From Micromonospora halotolerans (GTDB taxonomy: Bacteria; Actinomycetota; Actinomycetes; Mycobacteriales; Micromonosporaceae): a stretch of 64,000 nt of DNA. The stretch lies in assembly GCF_032108445.1 (NCBI RefSeq), contig NZ_CP134876.1:1116001-1180000 (forward strand). The letters are read 5' to 3'. This document shows, one piece after another, positions 52,441 through 64,000 of this stretch. Position 1 is the stretch's first letter, and the number at the start of each line of letters is the position of its first letter. The position numbers and the translations under genes are program-made. The notes under the pieces are model-generated. The model was not told the DNA's origin and searched no databases. It worked only from the letters and a program-made list of their open reading frames with translations.

Positions 52441-53700
52441 TCAGTCGACGGTGAGCAGCGGCAGTGGCGTCGCCCGGTAGCCGCCGCCCAGGTAGCGGTC
52501 GGGTTCGGCGTCGAGCACCGAGGCCAGGACCGTGCCGAAGACGTCGCGGAAGTCCACCGTGGCCTTCAGGTCGCCGTCGTCCAGGTCGGTGAGGCTCGGC
52601 TGCTCGCCGTGAAGCCCGCCGGCCACCACCGGCCCGAGGACGAACACCGGCCCGGCCGTCCCGTGGTCGGTGCCCTGGGAGGCGTTGGCGCGTACCCGCC
52701 GGCCGAACTCGCTGTAGACGACCACGGTCACCTGGCGGCCCTCCTCGGTGCGCGCCATCCGGGCCACGAACGCGGACAGCGCGCGGTCGAGCCGGGTGAG
52801 CAGGCTCTCGTGCCCGGCCCGCTCCATGGCGTGGGTGTCGAACCCGTCGAGGCTCACCGAGTAGACCTGGGTGGGCACCCCGGCCTCGACGCAGCGGGCC
52901 ACGAGCGCCAGCTGGGTCTCCAGGACGCTGCGGCTGCCGGGGCCGGTGGTGAGGACCTCCTGCTCGACACCGCCCGGGGTGGGGCTCTGGTGCTGTTCGG
53001 CGTCGCGGACCAGCTGCTCCACCCGGAGCAGGTCGCCGTAGGCGCGCGCCGCGCGGGCCTGCAGCTCCGGCTCGCCGGGCTCCCCCCGGCCGAGGGCGGC
53101 GACGGCGTCGGCGCTGATGCCCGGGGGCAGTTCGAGGCCGCCGACGTTGACGCAGGAACCGGCCCGGGTCTCCCCCGCGAGCACCGGCGGCAGCACCGGT
53201 TCGAAGCTGACCGCGGCCTCCGGGGCGGCCTTCGTGCCGTCGAGCCAGCGGCCCACCCAGCCGGTCGTCACCGGTTCGGCCGGGGACGCGGTCTGCCAGA
53301 TGTCCATGGACCGGAAGTGGCTGCGGTCGGGCCGCGGGTAGCCCGCCCCGAGGACGACCGCCAGCCGCTTCTCGTCCCAGAGCTGCTTCATGCCCCGCAT
53401 GACCGGGTTCAGGCCCAGGGCGTCGTCCAGGTGCAGCACCTTCTCCGGGTCGTACGCCAGCTCCGGCCGCGCATCGTGGTAGGCGGGGTCGGTGTAGGGG
53501 ACGACGGTGTTCAACCCGTCGTTGCCGCCGTAGAGCGTCACGAGGACGAGCTTCTTCGACGGTGCGTCGGCCCGGTCCTGCCCCGCGGTCCGCAGCAGCT
53601 GGGCGAGCCCCATCCCGCCGGCGCCGGCGGCGAGCGCGGCACCCGCGGTGACGCCCGAGGCGAGCAGGAACCGACGTCGGGTCTGTGGGGTCATCGTCAT
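52441..53700 (-). CDS. DUF1501 family Tat-exported protein
   Basis: Predicted 419-residue protein with a twin-arginine leader (TRRRFLLASGVTAGAALAAGAGGMGLAQLL). KLVLVTLYGGNDGLNTVVPYTDPAYHDARPEL, LAVVLGAGYPRPDRSHFRSMDIWQTA and VVYSEFGRRVRANASQGTDHGTAGPVFVLGP are the metal-binding parts of DUF1501, related to the alkaline-phosphatase fold of sulfatases. Biochemical function of DUF1501 is unproven. It is coupled by ATGA to DUF1800, its constant partner across bacteria, and is the last gene of the minus-strand EPS operon. Confidence 0.9.
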   Translation of the reverse strand: MTMTPQTRRRFLLASGVTAGAALAAGAGGMGLAQLLRTAGQDRADAPSKKLVLVTLYGGNDGLNTVVPYTDPAYHDARPELAYDPEKVLHLDDALGLNPVMRGMKQLWDEKRLAVVLGAGYPRPDRSHFRSMDIWQTASPAEPVTTGWVGRWLDGTKAAPEAAVSFEPVLPPVLAGETRAGSCVNVGGLELPPGISADAVAALGRGEPGEPELQARAARAYGDLLRVEQLVRDAEQHQSPTPGGVEQEVLTTGPGSRSVLETQLALVARCVEAGVPTQVYSVSLDGFDTHAMERAGHESLLTRLDRALSAFVARMARTEEGRQVTVVVYSEFGRRVRANASQGTDHGTAGPVFVLGPVVAGGLHGEQPSLTDLDDGDLKATVDFRDVFGTVLASVLDAEPDRYLGGGYRATPLPLLTVD

Positions 53701-54965
53701 GTCACCAGGTATTCCGGACTCGCCAAACCCAGGGTCAACAACTGCCGCCGGTCCTGCGTGCCGCGTAGCACGGCATAGGTGCGATTCGTCCACCGGTCGA
53801 CGCCCAGCAGGTACGCCAGGCTCTCCGGGGTCACCTGGTCGACCGGCGTCTGCTCGGCTACCCGGCCGGCCAGCCGCAGGCGGACCTGCGCGGCGGCGGA
53901 GGTCAACCAGGAGCCGCCGGAGGGCCAGCCGCCCACGTTGGGGGGCGCGAACGGCAGCTGCCCCAGGTTCTCCAGGTCGTGCAGGACGGCCTTGCGGGTC
54001 TCCGCGGGCAGGTTGGCCGGCCGCACACCCAGTTGCCGCAGCGCACCGACGAGCCACTCGACCGGCTGCTTCACCATGGTGCCGGCGGTCGCCTGGAACG
54101 CCTCGTCGGCGAGGAGCACCCGGAGCATGGCCATCGGCGCCGGGAAGGCGCGCGCCATCTTCTCCTGGAGCCCCTTCGGGATGGGCCGGGTGGACGAGCC
54201 GTACCGGAACCAGAGGCGGGCGGCGACGAACCGGGGACAGGCCTCCTGGCTCACCAGCAGGTCGACGAGGCTCTGCGCGGTGAAGTTCCCGGTGCGGCCC
54301 AGGATGCTCTTGCGACCCGGGTCGTGGGCCCGCGGGTCGAACACCGAGCGGCCCATGGTGAGGCTGAACCGCCAGCCGGTCAGCGCCCGCCCGGCCTCCT
54401 TGACGTCCTTCTCGGTGTAGTTGCCGATCCCCAGCAGGAACAGCTCGCACAGCTCGCGGGCGAGGTTCTCGTTGGGCGCCTGCCGGGTGTTGAGGTGCCC
54501 GTCCAGGTAGTGGTTCAGCGCCGCGTCGACGACCATCCGCCGGGCCATCACGGTGAAGTCGGGTGCGCCGCGCAGCGTCCGGTGCTGGCTGAGCATCAGC
54601 TGGGGGCTGCGCACCTTCTTGACCGACGTGGCCCAGTGCCCGTGCCAGAAGAAGACCAGCTTCTCGACCGCCTGGTGGCTGGCCACCGTCATCCGGTTCA
54701 GCCACCACTCGGTGAGCTGCGCGGTCTGCGCGTCGCGGAGGTCCTCCAGCCGAACCTTCTCCTCGTAGGTCAGGTCGTGCTTGCCCGCGTACGCGTCGGG
54801 CCCGAGGTCCGGGACGGGCGCGCCCGTCGCGCCGACGTCCGGGCCGGGCGGGGCGGTCAGACCGGTCAGTGCGGCGGCGTAGCCGGCCTGGCGAGCGGCG
54901 GCCAGCTCGACCGCGGTCGGGCCGAATCCGGCACGCCGCAGCAGCAGGCCGACACTGTCGCTCAT
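53697..54965 (-). CDS. DUF1800 family protein
   Basis: Predicted 422-residue helical protein. The signature segments are LLRRAGFGPTAVELAAARQAGYAAAL, EDLRDAQTAQLTEWWLNRMTVASHQAVEKLVFFWHGHWATS, NENLARELCELFLLGIGNYTEKDVKEAGRALTGWRFS and NVGGWPSGGSWL. There is no convincing signal peptide, so it may be exported with its DUF1501 partner by piggy-back or act in the cytosol. It has no verified activity. Position 27 bp downstream of the flippase-like gene links the pair to the EPS operon. Confidence 0.9.
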   Translation of the reverse strand: MSDSVGLLLRRAGFGPTAVELAAARQAGYAAALTGLTAPPGPDVGATGAPVPDLGPDAYAGKHDLTYEEKVRLEDLRDAQTAQLTEWWLNRMTVASHQAVEKLVFFWHGHWATSVKKVRSPQLMLSQHRTLRGAPDFTVMARRMVVDAALNHYLDGHLNTRQAPNENLARELCELFLLGIGNYTEKDVKEAGRALTGWRFSLTMGRSVFDPRAHDPGRKSILGRTGNFTAQSLVDLLVSQEACPRFVAARLWFRYGSSTRPIPKGLQEKMARAFPAPMAMLRVLLADEAFQATAGTMVKQPVEWLVGALRQLGVRPANLPAETRKAVLHDLENLGQLPFAPPNVGGWPSGGSWLTSAAAQVRLRLAGRVAEQTPVDQVTPESLAYLLGVDRWTNRTYAVLRGTQDRRQLLTLGLASPEYLVT

Positions 54966-54992: not shown

Positions 54993-56249
54993 TCAGGACA
55001 GACCGGTGTCCGACGCGACCGGTGTCGGCCGTGGACGGTCACGGGCCGGCAGCGCGACGAGAACCAGCGAGTAGACGACCATCCCGGCGGCCGACGCGAC
55101 CAGGTAGCCGGACGCTCCGTACTGGACGGTCAGCAGCGGCGCGGCGAGCACCGTCAGGCCGAGCATGACGTAGCGGGCGCGCAGGAGCAGCGCGAACTCG
55201 CCCCGGATGAACCTGCTCAGCGAGCAGCCGTAGGAGAACCCGAGCGCGGTCTTCTCCAGCCCGGCGGCGACCAGGACCCAGCCCACCGGCAGGAACGACA
55301 GCGCGGGGACGAATTCCTGCCCGACGAGCACGGCCAGCCCGAGGGCGGCCGAACCGGCGGCCATGAACGCCCACGCCTGCACCCCGTCCCGCAGGTCCTG
55401 CCGCCGGGTCGTGCCGACGTCGGCCTTGCGCTGGTAGACCAGCACCCGCCGGACGGTGATCGACACGAACGCCAACGGCCCGAACAGCTGCTGGGTGAGG
55501 CGGATGACGCCGAGCGTGGCGGCCTCGGCGACGAACGCGGTGGCCTGCAGGGCGAGCACCGGGGTGAGGCCGACGAGCAGGGCGTCCAGGGAGGCCGCGC
55601 CCATCACGCCCCGCCGGGACCGCACCCAGCCGGGCAGCCCGGCGAAGCGCGGCCGCCGCTCGGGTCGGCCGGCGGCGGCCAGGAGGAACACCACGTTCAC
55701 CACGGTCCAGGACAGGCAGACGGCCAGCGGTGAACGGGTGGCGGCGACCACCAGCACGACAAGCTGCGCGGCCAGCCACGCGGCCGTCTCCAGGAACACG
55801 GACCGGGCGGCGCCGGCCGCCACACCCGCGGCCCGGCCGATGTCCAGCGCGATCGCGAACGGGATGCCGGCCGCGTAGGCGACGGCCAGCTCGATCGACC
55901 CGCCGGACACGGCCAGCGCCGACGCCACCGCCAGGGCCGCGCCGGCGAGCCCGCCGGCGAACGCGGCGGCCACCGACCGCTGGCAGTCCGTCCGCTCGGC
56001 GTTCCGCTCGGCGTGCGCCTCGGCGAGCAGCGTCGCCTCGGCGAGGGACCGCTGCAGGACGCCGCAGGTCAGTTGGAACACCAGCATCGCGGGCGCGGTG
56101 GCGCCGACCGCGGACAGGTCACCGGCGTAGCCGAGGGCCAGGCTGAACACCAGGCTCGTGCCCATGAGGGCCAGTTGCCCGAGGGTCAGGGCGAGCCGGG
56201 CCCAGTTGCGCCCGGCGGCGGCCCGGGGCGGGGCGACCGTCCCGGTCAC
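54993..56249 (-). CDS. polysaccharide flippase-like membrane protein (Wzx-like)
   Basis: Predicted 418-residue protein with 11-12 likely membrane spans (e.g. LALTLGQLALMGTSLVFSLALG; ASLDALLVGLTPVLALQATAFVA; ALGLAVLVGQEFVPALSFLPVGW). The pattern of paired spans resembles MOP-superfamily flippases of the Wzx type, though no strong motif is visible. In its place between a GT4 and DUF1800 it is the natural candidate to flip the lipid-linked repeat unit. Start GTG 56249 overlaps the stop of the GT4 gene by 4 bp. Confidence 0.75.
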   Translation of the reverse strand: MTGTVAPPRAAAGRNWARLALTLGQLALMGTSLVFSLALGYAGDLSAVGATAPAMLVFQLTCGVLQRSLAEATLLAEAHAERNAERTDCQRSVAAAFAGGLAGAALAVASALAVSGGSIELAVAYAAGIPFAIALDIGRAAGVAAGAARSVFLETAAWLAAQLVVLVVAATRSPLAVCLSWTVVNVVFLLAAAGRPERRPRFAGLPGWVRSRRGVMGAASLDALLVGLTPVLALQATAFVAEAATLGVIRLTQQLFGPLAFVSITVRRVLVYQRKADVGTTRRQDLRDGVQAWAFMAAGSAALGLAVLVGQEFVPALSFLPVGWVLVAAGLEKTALGFSYGCSLSRFIRGEFALLLRARYVMLGLTVLAAPLLTVQYGASGYLVASAAGMVVYSLVLVALPARDRPRPTPVASDTGLS

Positions 56250-57460
56250 GGCCGCCGCCCCGCCGTCACGCCGTCCGCGGCGGACAGTGCCCGCCGGGTG
56301 GCGGCCACGACGGCCTGCGGCAGCGTCGTCGCCGCGCCGCCGCCGGGTCCGGCGATCGGGGGCGCCGCGCCCGCGAGGAGCTCACCGAGCGCGGCCGCCG
56401 CCGCGGCCGGGTCCTGGAAGTCGGCGTACGCGTAGACGCCGCCGGACACGGCCGCCGCCTCGGGCAGGCCGCCGAGCGGCGCGACCAGCATCGGCTTCCC
56501 GGTGCGCCCGACCTCGACGGCGACCCGGCCGAACGGCTCCATCCAGCGGGACGGGATGAGGACGACGTCGACCGCGTCGCAGAACGCGTCCACCGTCAGG
56601 TGGCCGGCCAGGTGCAGGTCGACCCCCTCCGAGCGGGCCAGCTCGGCCAGCGTCCGGGTGTAGTCGGGCTGCCCCTCACCGGCGACCAGCATCCGCACCG
56701 GCGTGCCGGTGCTCCGCTGGTGGGCGCCGGCCGTGCGGATGGCCGACTCGATGCCCTTCACCGGGTCGAGACGCCCGAGGTAGCCGACCACGAGCTGGGT
56801 CTCGTCGACGCGCCGGGCCGGGCGTACCGCTTCCGGCGGGCCGACAAGCGGGTAGCCGACGAGGCTCGCCGCCGGGGTGGTCAGGCCCGCCCCGGCGAGT
56901 TCGTCGCGGACGAAGCCGGAGACGCAGACGCCCACCGCGCCGCGCGGAGTGGCGCCCCGCATGATCCCGGCCTTGACCCGGCACTCCCCGCACAGGGTCA
57001 CGCAGGTGCGCGAGTCCTTCAGCCGCGACCGGCGCCAGCACGTGTCGCTCAGGTCGTGGAAGACCCGGACGTACCGCAGGCCGCGCGCCCGCACCCAGCG
57101 GGGCAGCCAGGGCCCGGTGCGGGAGATGTTGGTGGCCACCACGACGTCGGGCCGGAACGTCCGGATCCGCCGGGTCAGGCGGAACGCGACGAGGGGCAGC
57201 AGCCAGGCGGTCAGGAACTCCAGCCCGCGCCGGATCCGGGTGTCCGCGTGCTGCCGCCGGGCGAAGGGCCGCCGGACGGCGTGCACGGTGAGCGGACCGT
57301 CGGCGTACGTGTTGTCGGTGGTGGACGGCACGAAGACCGACACGTCGGCGAAGCCGGCCAGTTCCCGCGCGGCCGCCCGGGCGGAGCGCTCCGCGCCGCC
57401 GACCTCGTCGGGCCACCACCAGTCGGCGAGGACGGCGACCCGGGGCCGTGGTTCAGTCAT
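56246..57460 (-). CDS. GT4 family glycosyltransferase
   Basis: Predicted 404-residue GT-B enzyme. N-terminal VAVLADWWWPDEVGGAERSARAAARELAGFADVSVFVPSTTD; C-terminal nucleotide-sugar half with VVGYLGRLDPVKGIESAIRTAGAHQ, RMLVAGEGQPDY, and LIPSRWMEPFGRVAVEVGRTGKPMLVAPLGGLPE, which holds the EX7E-type acidic pair. A cysteine cluster (CVTLCGECRVKAG) in the middle may bind zinc. It would extend the lipid-linked repeat in the cytosol. The gene overlaps the Wzy-like gene by 8 bp. Confidence 0.93.
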   Translation of the reverse strand: MTEPRPRVAVLADWWWPDEVGGAERSARAAARELAGFADVSVFVPSTTDNTYADGPLTVHAVRRPFARRQHADTRIRRGLEFLTAWLLPLVAFRLTRRIRTFRPDVVVATNISRTGPWLPRWVRARGLRYVRVFHDLSDTCWRRSRLKDSRTCVTLCGECRVKAGIMRGATPRGAVGVCVSGFVRDELAGAGLTTPAASLVGYPLVGPPEAVRPARRVDETQLVVGYLGRLDPVKGIESAIRTAGAHQRSTGTPVRMLVAGEGQPDYTRTLAELARSEGVDLHLAGHLTVDAFCDAVDVVLIPSRWMEPFGRVAVEVGRTGKPMLVAPLGGLPEAAAVSGGVYAYADFQDPAAAAAALGELLAGAAPPIAGPGGGAATTLPQAVVAATRRALSAADGVTAGRRP

Positions 57461-58934
57461 GGGGCGCCATCTCCTCTGTTCGGGTGGGTGCCACGGTCGG
57501 GGGGCCGTGGTCCACCGGTGGGGGCGGTCGGGTCAGCCGCCAGCCCCGGTCGGGCAGGGCGAGCACGCCCACGACGAGCACCGCGAACGCGGCGCCGACG
57601 AACGGGATCTGCGCGCCGAGGGGACCGCGCAGCAGGCCGATCTGGAAGGCGGCGAAGGTGACCGTGAGGGCCGTCCCGAGGCCGGCCGGCGTGGCGCTCA
57701 ACGCGCGGTCGAGCCGCCGGGCGAGCCGCCCGTAGAAGAAGAACAGCACCACCACGCCGACGAAGGCGAACTCCAGGTACGTCTCGGCCCAGAACGGCAG
57801 GGCCAGGTTCTGGAAGGAGTAGCCCCGGCCGGCCGCCACCGCGTTGCCGGCCGGGATGGCCTTCCCCTCCCACCAGGACCGGGGTACCCAGAACAGCAGC
57901 GCGGAGACGAGGTGGTGGCCCCAGCTGTGGCCGTGCACGCGGGCGTAGTAGACGGCGTTCACGGTCTGCTGGAACCCGTCGAAGTCCCACGTGTAGTAGG
58001 CGTCCAGGCCCAACCGGAGGTCGCCGCGCGAGCGCTCGTTGCGGAACAGGTTCGCCAGCGGGTAGAGCACGGCGAGGCCGGTGAGCATGCCGAGCGAGAA
58101 CAGGGTCCGCCAGCGCTGCCGCTCGAACCGCACGATCGCCAGGCCGGCGGCGAGCAGCACGCCGAAGGCGGTGAACCGGTTCGCGGAGAGCGGGTTGTTG
58201 TAGACGACGTTGAGGAGCACCGCGACGGCCGTGGTGCCCAGCAGCACCCACCGTGCCCTCGGTCCGGCGTAACTCCGGCTCCGCCAGCAGAGCAGGCACA
58301 GCACCAGGGCGATCGCGGCGACGGCGGCCGGGAAGGTGCTGAGCAGGCCGAGCAGCGCCAGGTCCTGCCGGCTCTTCAGGCCGGCCTCGGCGATGGCCCG
58401 CTGGAGGTCGTCGCGGCTGCCGAACCGGACGGCCAGGCCGCCGGTCATCGGCAGGCAGACGACGGCCAGCACCGCGGCGGTGACGGTGACCGCCAGCGCC
58501 TTCTCGATGGTGATCCGGGTGCGGGGCGAGGTGTTGGAGCGCGGCGCGGGCAGGCGCCGGGTGTTGCCGGCCCAGTAGGCCAGCACCGCGAACAGGAGGA
58601 TGACCTGCGCGCTGACGTAGTACTGGTCCAGCGGCAGGTCGGGCCAGGGCAGCCGCCGGTCCCGGATCTGCAGCAGCGGCGCGAAGCCCACCCAGACCGT
58701 GACGAAGGCCCAGAACGTCACGGAGACCGGGCTGAACGACGCCGACCGGGTGGTCTGGTAGAGGGCCGTCAGGCACACCGCCACCACGACGAGGCCGAGC
58801 CCGCCGGCGACGGTCGGGCGGGGCAGCACGGTGGTCACGCCGAGGGCCGTGACGACGGCGAGCACCGCGACGGCCACGACCAGGGTGTGGCCGCCCGGCC
58901 TGCGGAGGCGCGGGGTGGCGTCAGGCGGTCTCAT
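57453..58934 (-). CDS. oligosaccharide repeat-unit polymerase (Wzy-like)
   Basis: Predicted 493-residue protein with 10-12 membrane spans and one large extracytoplasmic loop near the C-terminal half (FQQTVNAVYYARVHGHSWGHHLVSALLFWVPRSWWEGKAIPAGNAV), the layout of O-antigen/EPS polymerases. LGLDAYYTWDFDGFQQ precedes the loop. Sequence identity in Wzy proteins is low, so this rests on topology and context between two glycosyltransferases. It overlaps both neighbours (8 bp and 14 bp), showing tight operon structure. Confidence 0.8.
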   Translation of the reverse strand: MRPPDATPRLRRPGGHTLVVAVAVLAVVTALGVTTVLPRPTVAGGLGLVVVAVCLTALYQTTRSASFSPVSVTFWAFVTVWVGFAPLLQIRDRRLPWPDLPLDQYYVSAQVILLFAVLAYWAGNTRRLPAPRSNTSPRTRITIEKALAVTVTAAVLAVVCLPMTGGLAVRFGSRDDLQRAIAEAGLKSRQDLALLGLLSTFPAAVAAIALVLCLLCWRSRSYAGPRARWVLLGTTAVAVLLNVVYNNPLSANRFTAFGVLLAAGLAIVRFERQRWRTLFSLGMLTGLAVLYPLANLFRNERSRGDLRLGLDAYYTWDFDGFQQTVNAVYYARVHGHSWGHHLVSALLFWVPRSWWEGKAIPAGNAVAAGRGYSFQNLALPFWAETYLEFAFVGVVVLFFFYGRLARRLDRALSATPAGLGTALTVTFAAFQIGLLRGPLGAQIPFVGAAFAVLVVGVLALPDRGWRLTRPPPPVDHGPPTVAPTRTEEMAPHD

Positions 58935-60069
58935 CGGCGACCCACGAGGCGACGTTGGCGCGGAAGACCGCGGTGGAGAACCGGGCGGCGTGGGCGTGCA
59001 CCCGGTCCCGGTCCAGGCCGTCGACGTGCCGCAGCATGGCGGCGTACGCCCGGGGGTCGTCCGAGTCGACCAGGAAGCCGGTCTCGCCGTCGACGACCGT
59101 CTCCAGCACCCCGCCCCGGCGCAGCCCCAGCACCGGGGTGCCGCAGGCCATCGCCTCCACCGGGATGATGCCGAAGTCCTCGTGGGTGGGGAAGAGCAGG
59201 CACCGTGCCCCCCAGTACAGCTCGCGGAGCCGGTCCCGGGACGGCTGCCGCTCGAAGGTGACGGGGACGCCGACCCGGGCCGCCTGCCGGCGCAGGGCCT
59301 CCTCCTCCGGCCCCGACCCGGCGATGACCAGCGGCATCCCCGCGGCGTCGGCGATCTCGATCATCAGGTCGAACTTCTTGTACGGGATCCAGCGTCCGAC
59401 GCCGAGCAGGTAGTCGCGGTCCTGCCGGCGCTGCGCGGCCGGGGCGTCGGCGAAGTGGTCCACGTCGACCGGCGGGTGGATGATGCGGGCGTCGCGCTGC
59501 CAGAACCGCTGGATGCGGGCCTGCACCTCGCGGGAGTTGGCGGCGTAGCTGTGCACGTGTCGGCTCAGGCGGACGTCGGCGCCCTGAAGCACGCGCCGGG
59601 GCACGGTCAGCACGCCGTTCGAACCCCGGCCGTCGAAGTCCGGGCTCCACAGGTAGCGGGCCGGCGAGTGGATGTAGCTCAGGTAGCGCGCGTCCGGGGC
59701 GGACCGGAACTTCACGGTGTGCGCGAAGGCGTGGCTCGACGAGATGACCACGTCGAACCGCTCGCTGCTGAGCGTGCGCCAGGTCAGCGGCATGAGCGGC
59801 AACGCCAGCGCCTTGGACCGCCGCAACGGGGTCCGGGCCAGCCACGACTCCTGGAGGTCGAGGCCGCGTCGCGCGTCGCGGTCGCGCCACAGCACGAACC
59901 CCTTCGCGTCGGGCAGCACCTCCTGGATGGCCAGGAAGACGTTCTCCGAGCCGCCGGTGGCGCCGAACCACTCGTGCACGAGGGCGACCGACCGGCCGGC
60001 CAGCAGCGGGCCGCCCGCGCCCCCGCCAGCAGGATCGACCCCGGCGACGTCGCCGTCCCTGCTGATCAT
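58921..60069 (-). CDS. GT4-like glycosyltransferase
   Basis: Predicted 382-residue GT-B enzyme. SVALVHEWFGATGGSENVFLAIQEVLPDA, VISSSHAFAHTVKFRSAPDARYLSYIHSPARYLW, DYLLGVGRWIPYKKFDLMIEIADAAGMPLVIAGSGPEEEALR and LFPTHEDFGIIPVEAMACGTPVLGLRRGGVLETVVDGETGFLV define a retaining GT4 enzyme with the acidic EDFGIIPVE motif. It is similar in organisation to WbaZ-type mannosyl/rhamnosyl transferases (from memory); the sugar is unknown. ATG 60069 follows the acyltransferase stop by 5 bp. Confidence 0.93.
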   Translation of the reverse strand: MISRDGDVAGVDPAGGGAGGPLLAGRSVALVHEWFGATGGSENVFLAIQEVLPDAKGFVLWRDRDARRGLDLQESWLARTPLRRSKALALPLMPLTWRTLSSERFDVVISSSHAFAHTVKFRSAPDARYLSYIHSPARYLWSPDFDGRGSNGVLTVPRRVLQGADVRLSRHVHSYAANSREVQARIQRFWQRDARIIHPPVDVDHFADAPAAQRRQDRDYLLGVGRWIPYKKFDLMIEIADAAGMPLVIAGSGPEEEALRRQAARVGVPVTFERQPSRDRLRELYWGARCLLFPTHEDFGIIPVEAMACGTPVLGLRRGGVLETVVDGETGFLVDSDDPRAYAAMLRHVDGLDRDRVHAHAARFSTAVFRANVASWVADETA

Positions 60070-60074
60070 TCCGC

Positions 60075-63000
60075 TCACCCCATCACCATCTGCAACTGCT
60101 CGTCGAGCCGGGCCGCCAGCGTCCGCGCGTACGTCGCCGTGAGGTGATTCGTGTCGCGGTACACGAGCACCCCACCGATCACCGCCGCGCACCGTTCGGC
60201 GGGACAGATGGCGTCGTTCAGGTCGACCAGCCGTACGCCGGACAGACCCCGCGCCGCGTCCACCTGGAGCGGACCGATGCCCGCCAGGGCCTCGTCGCGG
60301 GGCACCGCGCACCGGGTCAACTCCTCCCGGTGGGCCGACACGCACTCCGCGACGTCCAGCCGCGGCGCCGGGGTGTCCCGCAGCACCACCACGGGGGCGA
60401 TTCCGGCCAGCGACCGCCACGTCCGGCGCATCCCGTCCACCAGCGCGGCGCGCCCCGCCGCACCCTTGAGCGGCCGGCCGTCGCGGTAGGCGGAGTAGTT
60501 GTAGCTGCTCGTCACGACCAGGTTCGGGCGGTCGGCGGCGAGCCGGTCGGGCAGGTCCCGGTTCCACGCCGCGCAGGCGTCGACGGGCCGCTGGCCGTCC
60601 GCGCCGACCACCTCGACGTCGAGGACCGGGCAGCTCGACTTGGTGTACGTCAGCAGCCGCCAGTTCCGCCGTTCCGCCACCGCCCGCAGCGTCGGCACCC
60701 ACTGGGCGGCGTGCGAGTCGCCGACCACGGCGATGGTGACCGTGGCGTCCGGCGGGCCGTACGCGCACCGCAGCACCTCGCGTTCGGTGGAGCCGGCGTG
60801 GCACCGGTCGGCGTAGACCGACGGCAGGTCGTCCCGGGCCACCGCCGGGTCGGGCACCACCGACGGGGCGCGGTCGACGGGCACCCCCGCGCCGGCCGCG
60901 CCGGCCGCGGTCAGCACGGCGGCGCCCGGCGCGTCGGGCACGCCCCCGTTGGCCTGGGGCGGGGCCGGCGCGGTGGCGGCGGTCTGGAAGGCCAGCCCCG
61001 CGCAGACCGACAGCACGGTGCAGGCCGCCCCGACCGCGAGCGCCACCCGGGGCCGCACCGCAAGCCGCGGCGAGTGCCAGACCGGCCGTTCCACCAGCCG
61101 ACTGGTCAGGTACGCGAGCACCACCGAGAGGGCCACGGTGGCGACCACGGCCAGCGTGCCCGGGTCGGGCATCTGCGCCGTGAGGACCACCAGCAGCGGC
61201 CAGTGCCAGAGGTAGAGCGTGTACGAGATCCCGCCGAGGAACTGCATCGGCGGCAACCGCAGGAGCGCGACCGGACCGTACCGCGCGGTGGCCCCGGCGG
61301 CGATGACGAGGGCCGCACCGACGGTGGCGGGCAGCGCCATCGTGCCCGGGAACGGGGTCGAGCTGGTCAGCACCACCGCGGAGGCGGCGATGGCCGCGAC
61401 GCCGAGCCAGCCCGCAACCGCGGCGACCCCGCCGGTCAGCCGCCGGATCGGCGCCAGCGCGAGCAGCGCCCCGACGGCGAGTTCCCACATCCGCGTGGTG
61501 GTGACGAAGTAGGCCCGGCCGGGGTCGGCCTCGACCAGCAGCACCGACCAGGCGAAGGAGGCCGCCCAGACGACGCCCACGGCGACGAACGCGAGGGTGC
61601 GGAACCGGGACGCCGGAGCGCGTCCCCGCCGGGCCAGCCAGGCGACGCCCACCAGCAGCACCGGCCACACGAGGTAGAACTGCTCCTCGACCGCGAGCGA
61701 CCAGTAGTGCTGCACGATGCTCGGCGCCTGGCCGGCGGCGAGGTAGTCGACGGCCTGGTCGGCGAGCCGCCAGTTGACCAGGTAGAGGGCGCTGCTCACC
61801 ACGTCGCCCGCCGTGTCCCGCCAGCGGATGTCCGGCAGCAGGAGGTACGTCAGGGCCACGGCCGCGAGCAGGACGAGCGCGGAGCTGGGCAGCAGGCGCT
61901 TGGCCCGCCTGGCCCAGAACCGGCCGAGCGACAGCCGCCCCCGGGCGGCCACCTCGGCAGCCATCCCGGTGGTGATCAGGTAGCCGGAGATCACGAAGAA
62001 GACGTCCACCCCGACGAAGCCGCCGGAGACGTACGGGACGCCGGCGTGCCAGAGCACCACCAACAGCACGGCGACCGCGCGGAGACCCTCGATGTCCGGG
62101 CGGAACGCGCTGCGGCGCCGCTCGCGGGGCGCCGCAGCGTCGGTGGGCGTCGCCGGCCCGCCGCCGTCGGCCGGCTCGGCCGCCGGCGTGCCGGGTCCCG
62201 CCTCGGGCAGGTGCAGCACCACCGTGTCGTCCAGGGCGGACGGCACGCCCGTCCGGTCCGGGCCGGCGGTGTCCGCCGGCGCCGGCGGCGCGGGCGCCTC
62301 CGTCCGGCGGGCCGCGGGCACGGTCAGCACGAGGGTGTCCTCGGCTGACGACGACACCGGCGGGGCGCTCGGGGCCGGCGGGCCGACCTCCGCCGTGGTG
62401 GGCGGCGGCGCGCCGACGGCCACCGGTTCCGCGTCGGTGCCGGGCCCGACCGGCCGCGGCCGGCGACGGAGCGCGCGCTGCCCGAGGGTCACCGCGCCGA
62501 TGACCAGCACGCCGCCCGCGGCGGAGAGGAGGTACGACCACCAGTCCGCGGCGTTCTCCGTGGCGTCCCCGTCCAGCCGCAGCCGCTCCTGCGCCCGCTG
62601 CCGGTACGCCCGGGCCGCGGCGTGCCCGGGGTCCCGGCCGAGCACGTCGTCGAACCGCTCGATCGCCTGGGAGTAGTGGCCGGCGAAGTAGACGGCCAGG
62701 GCCGACCGGAAGGCGCGGTCGCTCTCGCTCAACCGGTTGTCGACGCCGCTCTGGGCGAGCAGGCGGTCGATGTTGGCGGTGCCGATCAGGTCGCGGATCG
62801 GTTCGCCCTCGGCGGAGGTGTCGGTGTCCAGGAGCGCGACGAGCCGGCCGGCGGAGTCCACCACCGGGCCGCCCCGGGAGTCGGGACCGATCTGGCCGCT
62901 GACTCCGGTGCGGTTGGTCCCGGTACGCCCGATGACCTCGACCGTGCGGTCACGGACGGTCCAGGTGCCGGAGTCGCCGGTGCCCTCGCCGAGCGCGTAG

Positions 63001-63650
63001 CCGAGGATGTCCACCGAGGACCCGGCGCGCAGGTCGGGGTGGTGGGCGAGCTCGACGGCCGGGAGGCCGGCGCGGCGCAGCCTCACCAGTGCCACGTTGC
63101 CGTCCACCGCCGGCAGCGCCTTCGTGACGGCGCCGGCGACGGCCGGGACGGAGCTGTCCCCCGAGGTCGCCGCACCGAACTGGCCGGTCAGCCGCAGGGT
63201 CGGCGCGGTGCCGCGCCGGGCTCCGGTGAACGTGGAGGAGCCCTGGAGGCCGGCGACGAAACCGTCCAGCCGTTCCGCGGGCAGCTCGTTGCGCTGCACC
63301 AGCGTGCGGCCGAGCCGGTAGAGGGCGTTGACCAGCAGCACCTCCCGGCTCGGCTGCACGCAGACCGTGGTGGTCACCACGTAGCCGTCGGGGTTCACCA
63401 CCGCCCCGCTGCACCGGCGCACCACGACCACCTGTTCGGGACGGACCAGAGCGCCCGTGGCGGTGTTCCGGAGGTAGCCGGCGTACCGCGCCTCCAGGAA
63501 GGCGGTCGCCGGGGTGGCCACGGCGACCGCCGGCTCGTTGCGGGCGTACGTCGGCACCGCCGCCGCACCGGGGACGGCGGCGGCACAGCCGATCGCGACG
63601 GTGCCCAGCAGGACGGCGAACCGACGTGCCAGGGCCGTACCAGAGGGCAT
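60075..63650 (-). CDS. fusion: inactive trypsin-like domain, TPR, OafA acyltransferase and SGNH domain
   Basis: Predicted 1191-residue membrane protein. Residues 1-32 are a signal peptide. About 40-280 form a trypsin/DegP-like fold (SGAVVNPDGYVVTTTVCVQ; GNVALVRLRRAG; DSRGGPVVDSAGRLVALLD), but at the catalytic positions His is Val 96, Asp is Asn 185 and Ser is Arg 259. A TPR-like helical region (about 305-355) and a membrane span follow, then a Pro-rich linker. From about 520, an OafA acyltransferase-3 domain (FRPDIEGLRAVAVLLVVLWHAG) has about ten spans, ending in an SGNH domain (VVGDSHAAQWVPTL; DTNHLTATYAR). Likely O-acetylates the EPS. Confidence 0.9.
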   Translation of the reverse strand: MPSGTALARRFAVLLGTVAIGCAAAVPGAAAVPTYARNEPAVAVATPATAFLEARYAGYLRNTATGALVRPEQVVVVRRCSGAVVNPDGYVVTTTVCVQPSREVLLVNALYRLGRTLVQRNELPAERLDGFVAGLQGSSTFTGARRGTAPTLRLTGQFGAATSGDSSVPAVAGAVTKALPAVDGNVALVRLRRAGLPAVELAHHPDLRAGSSVDILGYALGEGTGDSGTWTVRDRTVEVIGRTGTNRTGVSGQIGPDSRGGPVVDSAGRLVALLDTDTSAEGEPIRDLIGTANIDRLLAQSGVDNRLSESDRAFRSALAVYFAGHYSQAIERFDDVLGRDPGHAAARAYRQRAQERLRLDGDATENAADWWSYLLSAAGGVLVIGAVTLGQRALRRRPRPVGPGTDAEPVAVGAPPPTTAEVGPPAPSAPPVSSSAEDTLVLTVPAARRTEAPAPPAPADTAGPDRTGVPSALDDTVVLHLPEAGPGTPAAEPADGGGPATPTDAAAPRERRRSAFRPDIEGLRAVAVLLVVLWHAGVPYVSGGFVGVDVFFVISGYLITTGMAAEVAARGRLSLGRFWARRAKRLLPSSALVLLAAVALTYLLLPDIRWRDTAGDVVSSALYLVNWRLADQAVDYLAAGQAPSIVQHYWSLAVEEQFYLVWPVLLVGVAWLARRGRAPASRFRTLAFVAVGVVWAASFAWSVLLVEADPGRAYFVTTTRMWELAVGALLALAPIRRLTGGVAAVAGWLGVAAIAASAVVLTSSTPFPGTMALPATVGAALVIAAGATARYGPVALLRLPPMQFLGGISYTLYLWHWPLLVVLTAQMPDPGTLAVVATVALSVVLAYLTSRLVERPVWHSPRLAVRPRVALAVGAACTVLSVCAGLAFQTAATAPAPPQANGGVPDAPGAAVLTAAGAAGAGVPVDRAPSVVPDPAVARDDLPSVYADRCHAGSTEREVLRCAYGPPDATVTIAVVGDSHAAQWVPTLRAVAERRNWRLLTYTKSSCPVLDVEVVGADGQRPVDACAAWNRDLPDRLAADRPNLVVTSSYNYSAYRDGRPLKGAAGRAALVDGMRRTWRSLAGIAPVVVLRDTPAPRLDVAECVSAHREELTRCAVPRDEALAGIGPLQVDAARGLSGVRLVDLNDAICPAERCAAVIGGVLVYRDTNHLTATYARTLAARLDEQLQMVMG

Positions 63651-63685: not shown

Positions 63686-64000
63686 TCAGAAGATCAGGGT
63701 GTCGCGCAGGTGGTTGGCCACCCGGCGCAGCCGACCCGCACCGTCGATCGGGGAGGTCATCCGGAAGACGACCTGACGGTCGATCTGCCCGCTGTTCCCG
63801 CCCCGCCAGTACGCGACGAGCACCAGGCCGTACCGGCGCTCACCGTCGAGCTGGAGCTTGCTGGAGTCGGCGTAGGAGACGAACTGGCCGCCCCGCATCC
63901 ACTGCAGACCCCAGGCCTCCTCCTCCTGGCGCATCGCGGTCTGCCGCCGCACGTCGCACGGCACCGGGCACTCGCGCACGATCAGCTCGCCGCCGATCTG
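63686..64000 (-). CDS. unidentified protein (partial, 5' end beyond window)
   Basis: The reading frame is open from the last base of the window to a stop at 63686 and encodes at least 104 C-terminal residues. An in-frame GTG at 63979 could be mistaken for a start, but codons upstream of it (QIGGELIV) also read through. The sequence contains two Cys in ECPVPCDVRRQ and QFVSYADSSKLQLDGERRYGLVLVAYWR, which looks like a beta-rich extracytoplasmic domain. It is the first gene visible of the EPS operon and lies 35 bp upstream of the acyltransferase. Function unknown. Confidence 0.7.
   Translation of the reverse strand, partial: QIGGELIVRECPVPCDVRRQTAMRQEEEAWGLQWMRGGQFVSYADSSKLQLDGERRYGLVLVAYWRGGNSGQIDRQVVFRMTSPIDGAGRLRRVANHLRDTLIF

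What the first reader, a model, noticed from the sequence alone, without database searches (positions are those of the whole stretch)
60075..63650. A protease-dead trypsin-like domain fused to an OafA acyltransferase and SGNH domain
One 1191-residue protein in an EPS operon joins a signal peptide, a trypsin/DegP-like fold, a TPR-like stretch, an acyltransferase-3 membrane domain and an SGNH esterase-type domain. Against the DegP motifs, all three triad positions are replaced (His to Val 96, Asp to Asn 185, Ser to Arg 259), while the SGNH GDSH and DxxH residues are intact. A consistent loss of all three residues suggests a non-catalytic binding or sensing role that could gate O-acylation of the exopolysaccharide. 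I know of no description of such a fusion, but could not search.
Basis: partly seen in the sequence, partly recalled or inferred. Interest (0 to 1): 0.85.

Follow-up and report, generated by a model that had tools for sequence, protein, structure and literature searches.

The report
Dead protease fused to sugar acyltransferase
A soil bacterium has joined a former protein-cutting enzyme, which has lost its cutting residues but is still kept by selection, to an enzyme that probably decorates secreted sugars, and related bacteria keep the dead enzyme as a separate part of sugar-coat gene clusters, which suggests that it now works as a docking or sensing part.

The parts
60075..63650 (-). fusion gene, 1191 aa: signal peptide - dead trypsin fold - TPR-like helices - TM - linker - AT3 - SGNH
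63555..63650 (-). presumed signal peptide, residues 1-32 (hydrophobic 11-29); GGAG lies 7 bases before the ATG
   Evidence: inference
62742..63554 (-). trypsin fold, residues 33-303; V96 (63363-63365), N185 (63096-63098), R259 (62874-62876) at the triad positions; C80/C97 at C42/C58
62571..62726 (-). three helices, residues 309-360, TPR-like
   Evidence: (under cut-off)
62478..62540 (-). transmembrane helix, about residues 371-391; 1 Lys/Arg before it, 5 within 15 residues after it (positive inside)
62106..62474 (-). fast-evolving linker, residues 393-515, presumed cytoplasmic
62325..62339 (-). motif DTLVL, residues 438-442
62214..62228 (-). motif DTVVL, residues 475-479
61101..62096 (-). AT3 membrane acyltransferase domain, residues 519-850; R524-x10-H535 and R582-x-x-R585 present
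60990..61046 (-). extra hydrophobic helix before the SGNH domain, residues 869-887
60102..60806 (-). SGNH domain, residues 949-1183; GDSH 977-980, DxxH 1166-1169
58921..60078 (-). glycosyltransferase (Glycos_transf_1); a GTG start would overlap the stop of the fusion gene (GTGA); an ATG a few bases on is also possible
57453..58934 (-). Wzy-like oligosaccharide repeat unit polymerase (TIGR04370 E 1.9e-5, 23.8 bits, below its cut-off of 40)
56246..57460 (-). glycosyltransferase
54993..56249 (-). presumed Wzx flippase (no family match; label is inference from place and hydrophobic sequence)
63686..64000 (-). 3' part of the upstream gene (whole frame: L039 4687-6036): kinase-N-lobe-like domain - TM - PsbP-like domain

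Best explanation
The protein is a lineage-specific fusion of two neighbouring genes of one polysaccharide operon: a trypsin-fold membrane protein that is no longer a protease, and an AT3-SGNH O-acyltransferase. Shown: the domain order, the dead triad, its conservation, the separate neighbouring genes in two relatives. Inferred: the dead domain and its helices bind a partner on the outer face of the membrane (a component of the Wzx/Wzy machinery, or the lipid-linked or growing sugar chain) and so hold the acyltransferase where repeat units emerge; the AT3 domain passes an acyl group across the membrane and the SGNH domain puts it on the sugar (as proposed for OafB). The linker with its (D/E)T(V/L)VL motifs is a docking or Thr-phosphorylation site that ties the complex to cytoplasmic regulation, perhaps with the kinase-N-lobe protein encoded just upstream.
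Against: No partner, ligand or phosphorylation has been shown. Motifs are missing in 2 of 13 fusion linkers (P0012, P0013), in 7 of 15 standalone tails of the same clade, and in 13 of 13 other tails long enough to count. The fused rows do not form one clade on the trees, although one clade is not rejected (p-AU 0.096), so the order of fusion and fission is open. P0014 and G163 lack the dead domain and keep AT3-SGNH, so the acyltransferase can apparently do without it. dN/dS rests on one pair of strains. The control windows come from one genome only. Reach beyond the family was not tested: the wider genome searches gave no answer.
Confidence: 0.5

Rival explanations
1. The dead domain senses a ligand and switches the acyltransferase on and off.
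For: One polypeptide; adjacent genes in L041 and L042; a more distant AT3-SGNH gene (30-46% identity) lies on the opposite strand in 10 of 79 further loci, 8 of them 24-223 bases away.
Against: No AT3-SGNH hit in 66 of 79 loci; the module is present without AT3 in five of seven non-fused, window-like operons. The 8 close convergent cases form one clade on the tree, so they count about once.
Confidence: 0.2
2. The dead module and the upstream kinase-N-lobe protein form a degenerate receptor that organises or length-controls Wzx/Wzy assembly; AT3 was joined by accident of gene order.
Against: Wzz proteins occur in 40 of 40 genomes asked, and in G300, G303, G306 and G307 within about 4 kb of the module, so it does not simply replace Wzz. 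Most of those 56 loci carry polysaccharide genes of other kinds than the window's. No functional data.
Confidence: 0.22
3. It is still a protease with unusual catalytic residues.
For: S258 is kept in 13 of 13 fusions and 71 of 79 loci.
Against: S258 lies one place off the nucleophile; His57 and Asp102 are gone too; three distant relatives with intact triads (L056, L058, L119) show what the active form looks like.
Confidence: 0.03
4. The trypsin part is a decaying remnant.
For: Absent altogether in P0014 and G163.
Against: dN/dS 0.14 against 1.24 for the linker of the same gene; C80, V96, C97, N185, S258 and R259 unchanged in 13 of 13 fusions.
Confidence: 0.03

Closest known systems
AT3-SGNH O-acyltransferases (OafA/OafB, OatA; SucT in mycobacteria)
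   Same: AT3 domain with R-x10-H and RxxR, extra helix, SGNH domain with GDSH and DxxH; SucT is the best NCBIfam match
   Different: SucT score 335 bits, cut-off 1275. Signal peptide, dead trypsin domain, helices and TM added in front; the review (PMC9558356, section 4 read; passages) names AT3 alone, C-terminal SGNH and C-terminal alanine racemase, and the words protease, peptidase and trypsin do not occur in its text
HtrA/DegS proteases
   Different: No triad, conserved Cys pair at C42/C58, no PDZ match in Pfam, TPR-like helices and a C-terminal TM instead
MamO (dead HtrA-type protease, magnetosome)
   Same: Trypsin fold that lost catalysis and is kept for binding
   Different: MamO binds metal and works in another pathway (PMC4794232, passages); kinship beyond the fold was not tested
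EssB (dead kinase fold, type VII secretion)
   Same: Kinase-like cytoplasmic domain - TM - extracytoplasmic domain in a membrane machine, as in the gene upstream
   Different: EssB keeps both lobes (PMC3694306, passages); here the model shows the N-lobe only
Wzz co-polymerases
   Same: Large outer domain beside membrane helices, at Wzx/Wzy loci (resemblance recalled)
   Different: No Wzz match in P0001; trypsin fold; Wzz proteins exist in the same genomes

Membership tests
Trypsin_2 / HtrA-type fold | trypsin-like fold | tested here: met
Active S1 protease | His57, Asp102, Ser195 | tested here: not met
   V/N/R in 13 of 13 fusions
HtrA protease | C-terminal PDZ domain | tested here: inconclusive
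   no PDZ match in Pfam at E 1; weak matches can be missed
AT3-SGNH acyltransferase | AT3 domain with R-x10-H and RxxR | tested here: met
AT3-SGNH acyltransferase | SGNH domain with GDSH and DxxH | tested here: met
AT3-SGNH acyltransferase | transfer of an acyl group to a sugar | not testable with these tools
   needs biochemistry
SucT equivalog (NCBIfam NF058601) | score over the curated cut-off | tested here: not met
   334.9 against 1275 bits
TPR protein | TPR repeat over the Pfam cut-off | tested here: not met
   TPR_19 13.9 bits, cut-off 25; helices are there in the model
Wzz co-polymerase | Wzz domain (PF02706) | tested here: not met
   no such match in P0001 at E 1
Ser/Thr kinase (upstream gene) | whole kinase domain (Pfam match, both lobes) | tested here: not met
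   no Pfam match at E 1; model shows N-lobe topology only; weak NCBIfam match to a Ser/Thr kinase, residues 2-59, E 0.047, far below cut-off
Ser/Thr kinase (upstream gene) | VAIK lysine | tested here: not met
   Leu at that place in the 19 sequences aligned

The most novel reading that the evidence does not exclude
Micromonosporaceae control their polysaccharide export with a receptor made of two dead enzymes: a lone kinase N-lobe inside and a dead trypsin-TPR module outside, in one chain in many species or split into two neighbouring genes. It reads the emerging glycan or its machinery and passes the state inward, in the window's clade through (D/E)TVVL tails that are phosphorylated or bound; in the window's lineage the outer half has been fused to the acyltransferase that it steers.
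Probability: 0.15. Interest if true: 0.78.

Novelty: new variant of a known kind. Interest (0 to 1): 0.55.

Why it matters
A family of dead proteases tied to polysaccharide loci appears not to be described: searches for pseudoprotease with trypsin-like and exopolysaccharide (20 of 87 papers listed), AT3 and SGNH architectures (20 of 21 listed), Micromonospora with acyltransferase, trypsin-like and Wzy (3 papers), and acyltransferase, SGNH, trypsin-like, N-terminal and fusion protein together (no paper) showed none in the titles and abstract starts listed. The library holds open-licence papers only. Two different natural fusions of the same module name likely partners (the acyltransferase and the kinase-N-lobe protein) and so give direct, testable predictions.

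Tried and rejected
Sequencing or frame artefact: rejected, 12 other fusion records and a second strain. Active protease in another register: rejected, the Cys pair fixes it. Replacement of Wzz by the dead module: weakened, Wzz lies about 4 kb away in 4 of the 40 genomes asked (40 of the 83 matching genomes were given). One origin of the fusion: left open. Promoter and terminator scan: 0 sigma-70-type promoters, 3 terminator-like sites against a shuffle mean of 1.4 (sd 1.2); not used. Anti-phage families: none at E 0.001 in the three proteins given. PDB sequence search: only weak DegP-type hits (best E 0.098) and, for the upstream protein, nothing useful. Family models for the presumed Wzx: none for the window's protein nor for three relatives, one of them a frame read from a far start. 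Spread beyond the family: not answered (below). A published Actinoplanes sporangium system was looked at as a possible match: in the passages of PMC12691653 I saw no such protein, and in PMC13390465 the words trypsin, protease and DUF1501 do not occur, so it was dropped. A pattern check on the other own-genome trypsin hits found the Ser motif (GNSGG or GDSGG) in 5 of 7 loci (L002, L003, L004, L006, L007); the His match of L002 was clearly off and L001 and L005 gave nothing, so I do not lean on it.

Rows dropped: L055 (G163, match of 37 residues only) before the context counts; G134 and G142 of the 83 matching genomes were not fetched; four stretches are shorter than 20 kb because the contig ends or I asked for less (L048, L051, L081, L098); one of 115 domain hits was too short for the triad count; 6 identical rows before the tree (108 of 114); 58 tails under 15 residues in the motif count. 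The motif was first counted in a narrower form (4 in 19 tails, shuffle mean 0.09) and then widened after seeing the tails, so its numbers are descriptive. The 114 rows partly repeat the same proteins (database record and genome locus). 'Same frame' means no stop between the two matches; start sites were not checked, and in some loci the matched part of the upstream protein is short (L072, 32 residues at a contig end).

Full report
WHAT IS THERE. The frame 60075-63650, minus strand, encodes 1191 residues. Pfam finds Trypsin_2 (80-273), Acyl_transf_3 (519-850) and SGNH (949-1183) above their cut-offs, and a TPR below it. The ATG has GGAG 7 bases upstream; the gene lies 35 bases after the stop of an upstream gene on the same strand. 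Its own stop overlaps a possible GTG start of the next gene, a glycosyltransferase. Then follow a Wzy-like polymerase (TIGR04370 E 1.9e-5, below cut-off), a second glycosyltransferase, a protein presumed to be Wzx (no family match), and DUF1800 and DUF1501 proteins; beyond them on the plus strand a sugar transferase (Bac_transf) and an LCP protein. The named close relatives are Micromonospora, with one record labelled Nonomuraea and one without a name.

SELECTION. Between the window and the same-species strain (L120), dN/dS is 0.14 for the trypsin fold, 0.24 for the helices, 0.28 for AT3, 0.27 for SGNH, 1.24 for the linker; the 23-codon TM shows no amino-acid change and the 32-codon signal peptide 0.93. 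One pair of strains, so rough, but the dead domain is not decaying.

WHERE THE MODULE OCCURS. Of 354 genomes of the family, 83 match residues 1-400, one of them (G163) only by 37 residues around the TM. I fetched up to 20 kb around 80 of the 82 matches in other genomes; G163 was set aside, leaving 79. Of these 79: AT3-SGNH fused 1 (same species), separate and directly downstream on the same strand 2 (L041, L042), on the opposite strand 10 (8 of them 24-223 bases away), none 66. Part of the upstream gene's protein is in the same open frame as the dead module in 56, a separate gene in 7, not found in 16. L041-L046 and L050 hold the module with glycosyltransferases, Wzy and presumed Wzx genes of the window's kind, and only L041 and L042 also have AT3. 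67 of 79 loci hit at least one of nine panel genes (two glycosyltransferases, Wzy, presumed Wzx, sugar transferase, LCP, DUF1501, DUF1800, AT3-SGNH) at 100 bits or more, against 0 of 20 spaced windows of the own genome. The control uses one genome, the loci many. Without the two DUFs and AT3-SGNH the count is 56 of 79. In the larger part of the loci the polysaccharide genes are of other kinds: of neighbours read from three loci, examples are a pyruvyl transferase, a Polysacc_synt flippase, GT2 and Wzy_C proteins.

FUSION HISTORY. The database search gave 12 fusions besides the window's protein and one protein (P0014) with AT3-SGNH but without the trypsin fold (only the 7988 candidates sharing most words were scored). 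On the trees, standalone proteins P0015-P0019 fall among fusions. Holding the fusions together is not rejected (p-AU 0.096). So either one fusion with later splits or several fusions.

THE LINKER. Between TM and AT3 lies a fast-changing, Pro-rich stretch with (D/E)T(V/L)VL motifs: 24 in 13 linkers (11 of 13 have at least one), 23 in 15 standalone tails of the same clade (8 of 15), 0 in 13 other tails of 15 residues or more (58 shorter ones not counted), 6 in 110,796 residues of 317 called genes. The pattern was widened after a first look. Acidic residues at -1 and Leu/Val at +3 are among those enriched at PknA-dependent Thr sites in M. tuberculosis (PMC7164672, passage). Whether these Thr are phosphorylated is unknown.

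MECHANISM. Shown: architecture, dead triad, constraint, locus association, two kinds of natural fusion. From the literature: AT3 is thought to pass an acyl group through the membrane and SGNH to transfer it to the sugar (PMC9833829, passages; PMC9558356, section 4). Inferred: the dead domain binds something on the outer face that belongs to Wzx/Wzy assembly, and the fusion keeps the acyltransferase there. Against a pure gate for acylation: the module mostly occurs without AT3. Against a simple stand-in for Wzz: Wzz proteins occur in 40 of 40 genomes asked, about 4 kb from the module in four.

VERDICT. It is a new variant made of known parts. The wider find is a family of dead proteases at polysaccharide loci that is often joined to a part of a second protein, modelled as a kinase N-lobe.

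Noticed in passing
63686-64000 (rest in L039 4687-6036): Upstream gene: lone PknB-like kinase N-lobe with Leu at the VAIK lysine place, TM, PsbP-like domain; part of it shares a frame with the dead trypsin module in 56 of 79 relatives.
   Followed up: partly
L053, L064, L069, L074, L081, L083, L104, L107 (also L093, L109 further off): A more distant AT3-SGNH gene (30-46% identity) lies on the opposite strand close to the dead-trypsin gene; the eight close ones form one clade.
   Followed up: partly
L055; protein P0014: AT3-SGNH of the same kind without the trypsin fold; P0014 keeps the linker and TM, and G163 (L055) matches around the TM.
   Followed up: partly
52441-54965: DUF1501 and DUF1800 genes belong to the same gene row and occur near the dead trypsin module in 17 and 18 of 79 loci.
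   Followed up: no
L039 6083-13940: The locus abuts a stretch that looks like histidine utilisation (labels recalled from sequence); it is kept beside the module in most of the same-genus loci while the polysaccharide genes differ.
   Followed up: no
P0001 residues 275-277 (62820-62828): A D-x-D after the former Ser loop is invariant or nearly so in the 15 sequences; in some more distant rows the first Asp is replaced. Could be a metal site.
   Followed up: no
P0004: A fusion protein 87% identical over residues 1-500 is labelled Nonomuraea in its source record, among Micromonospora otherwise; mislabel or transfer.
   Followed up: no
L056, L058, L119: Distant relatives with intact catalytic triads, away from the polysaccharide panel genes; candidates for the form the dead family came from.
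   Followed up: partly
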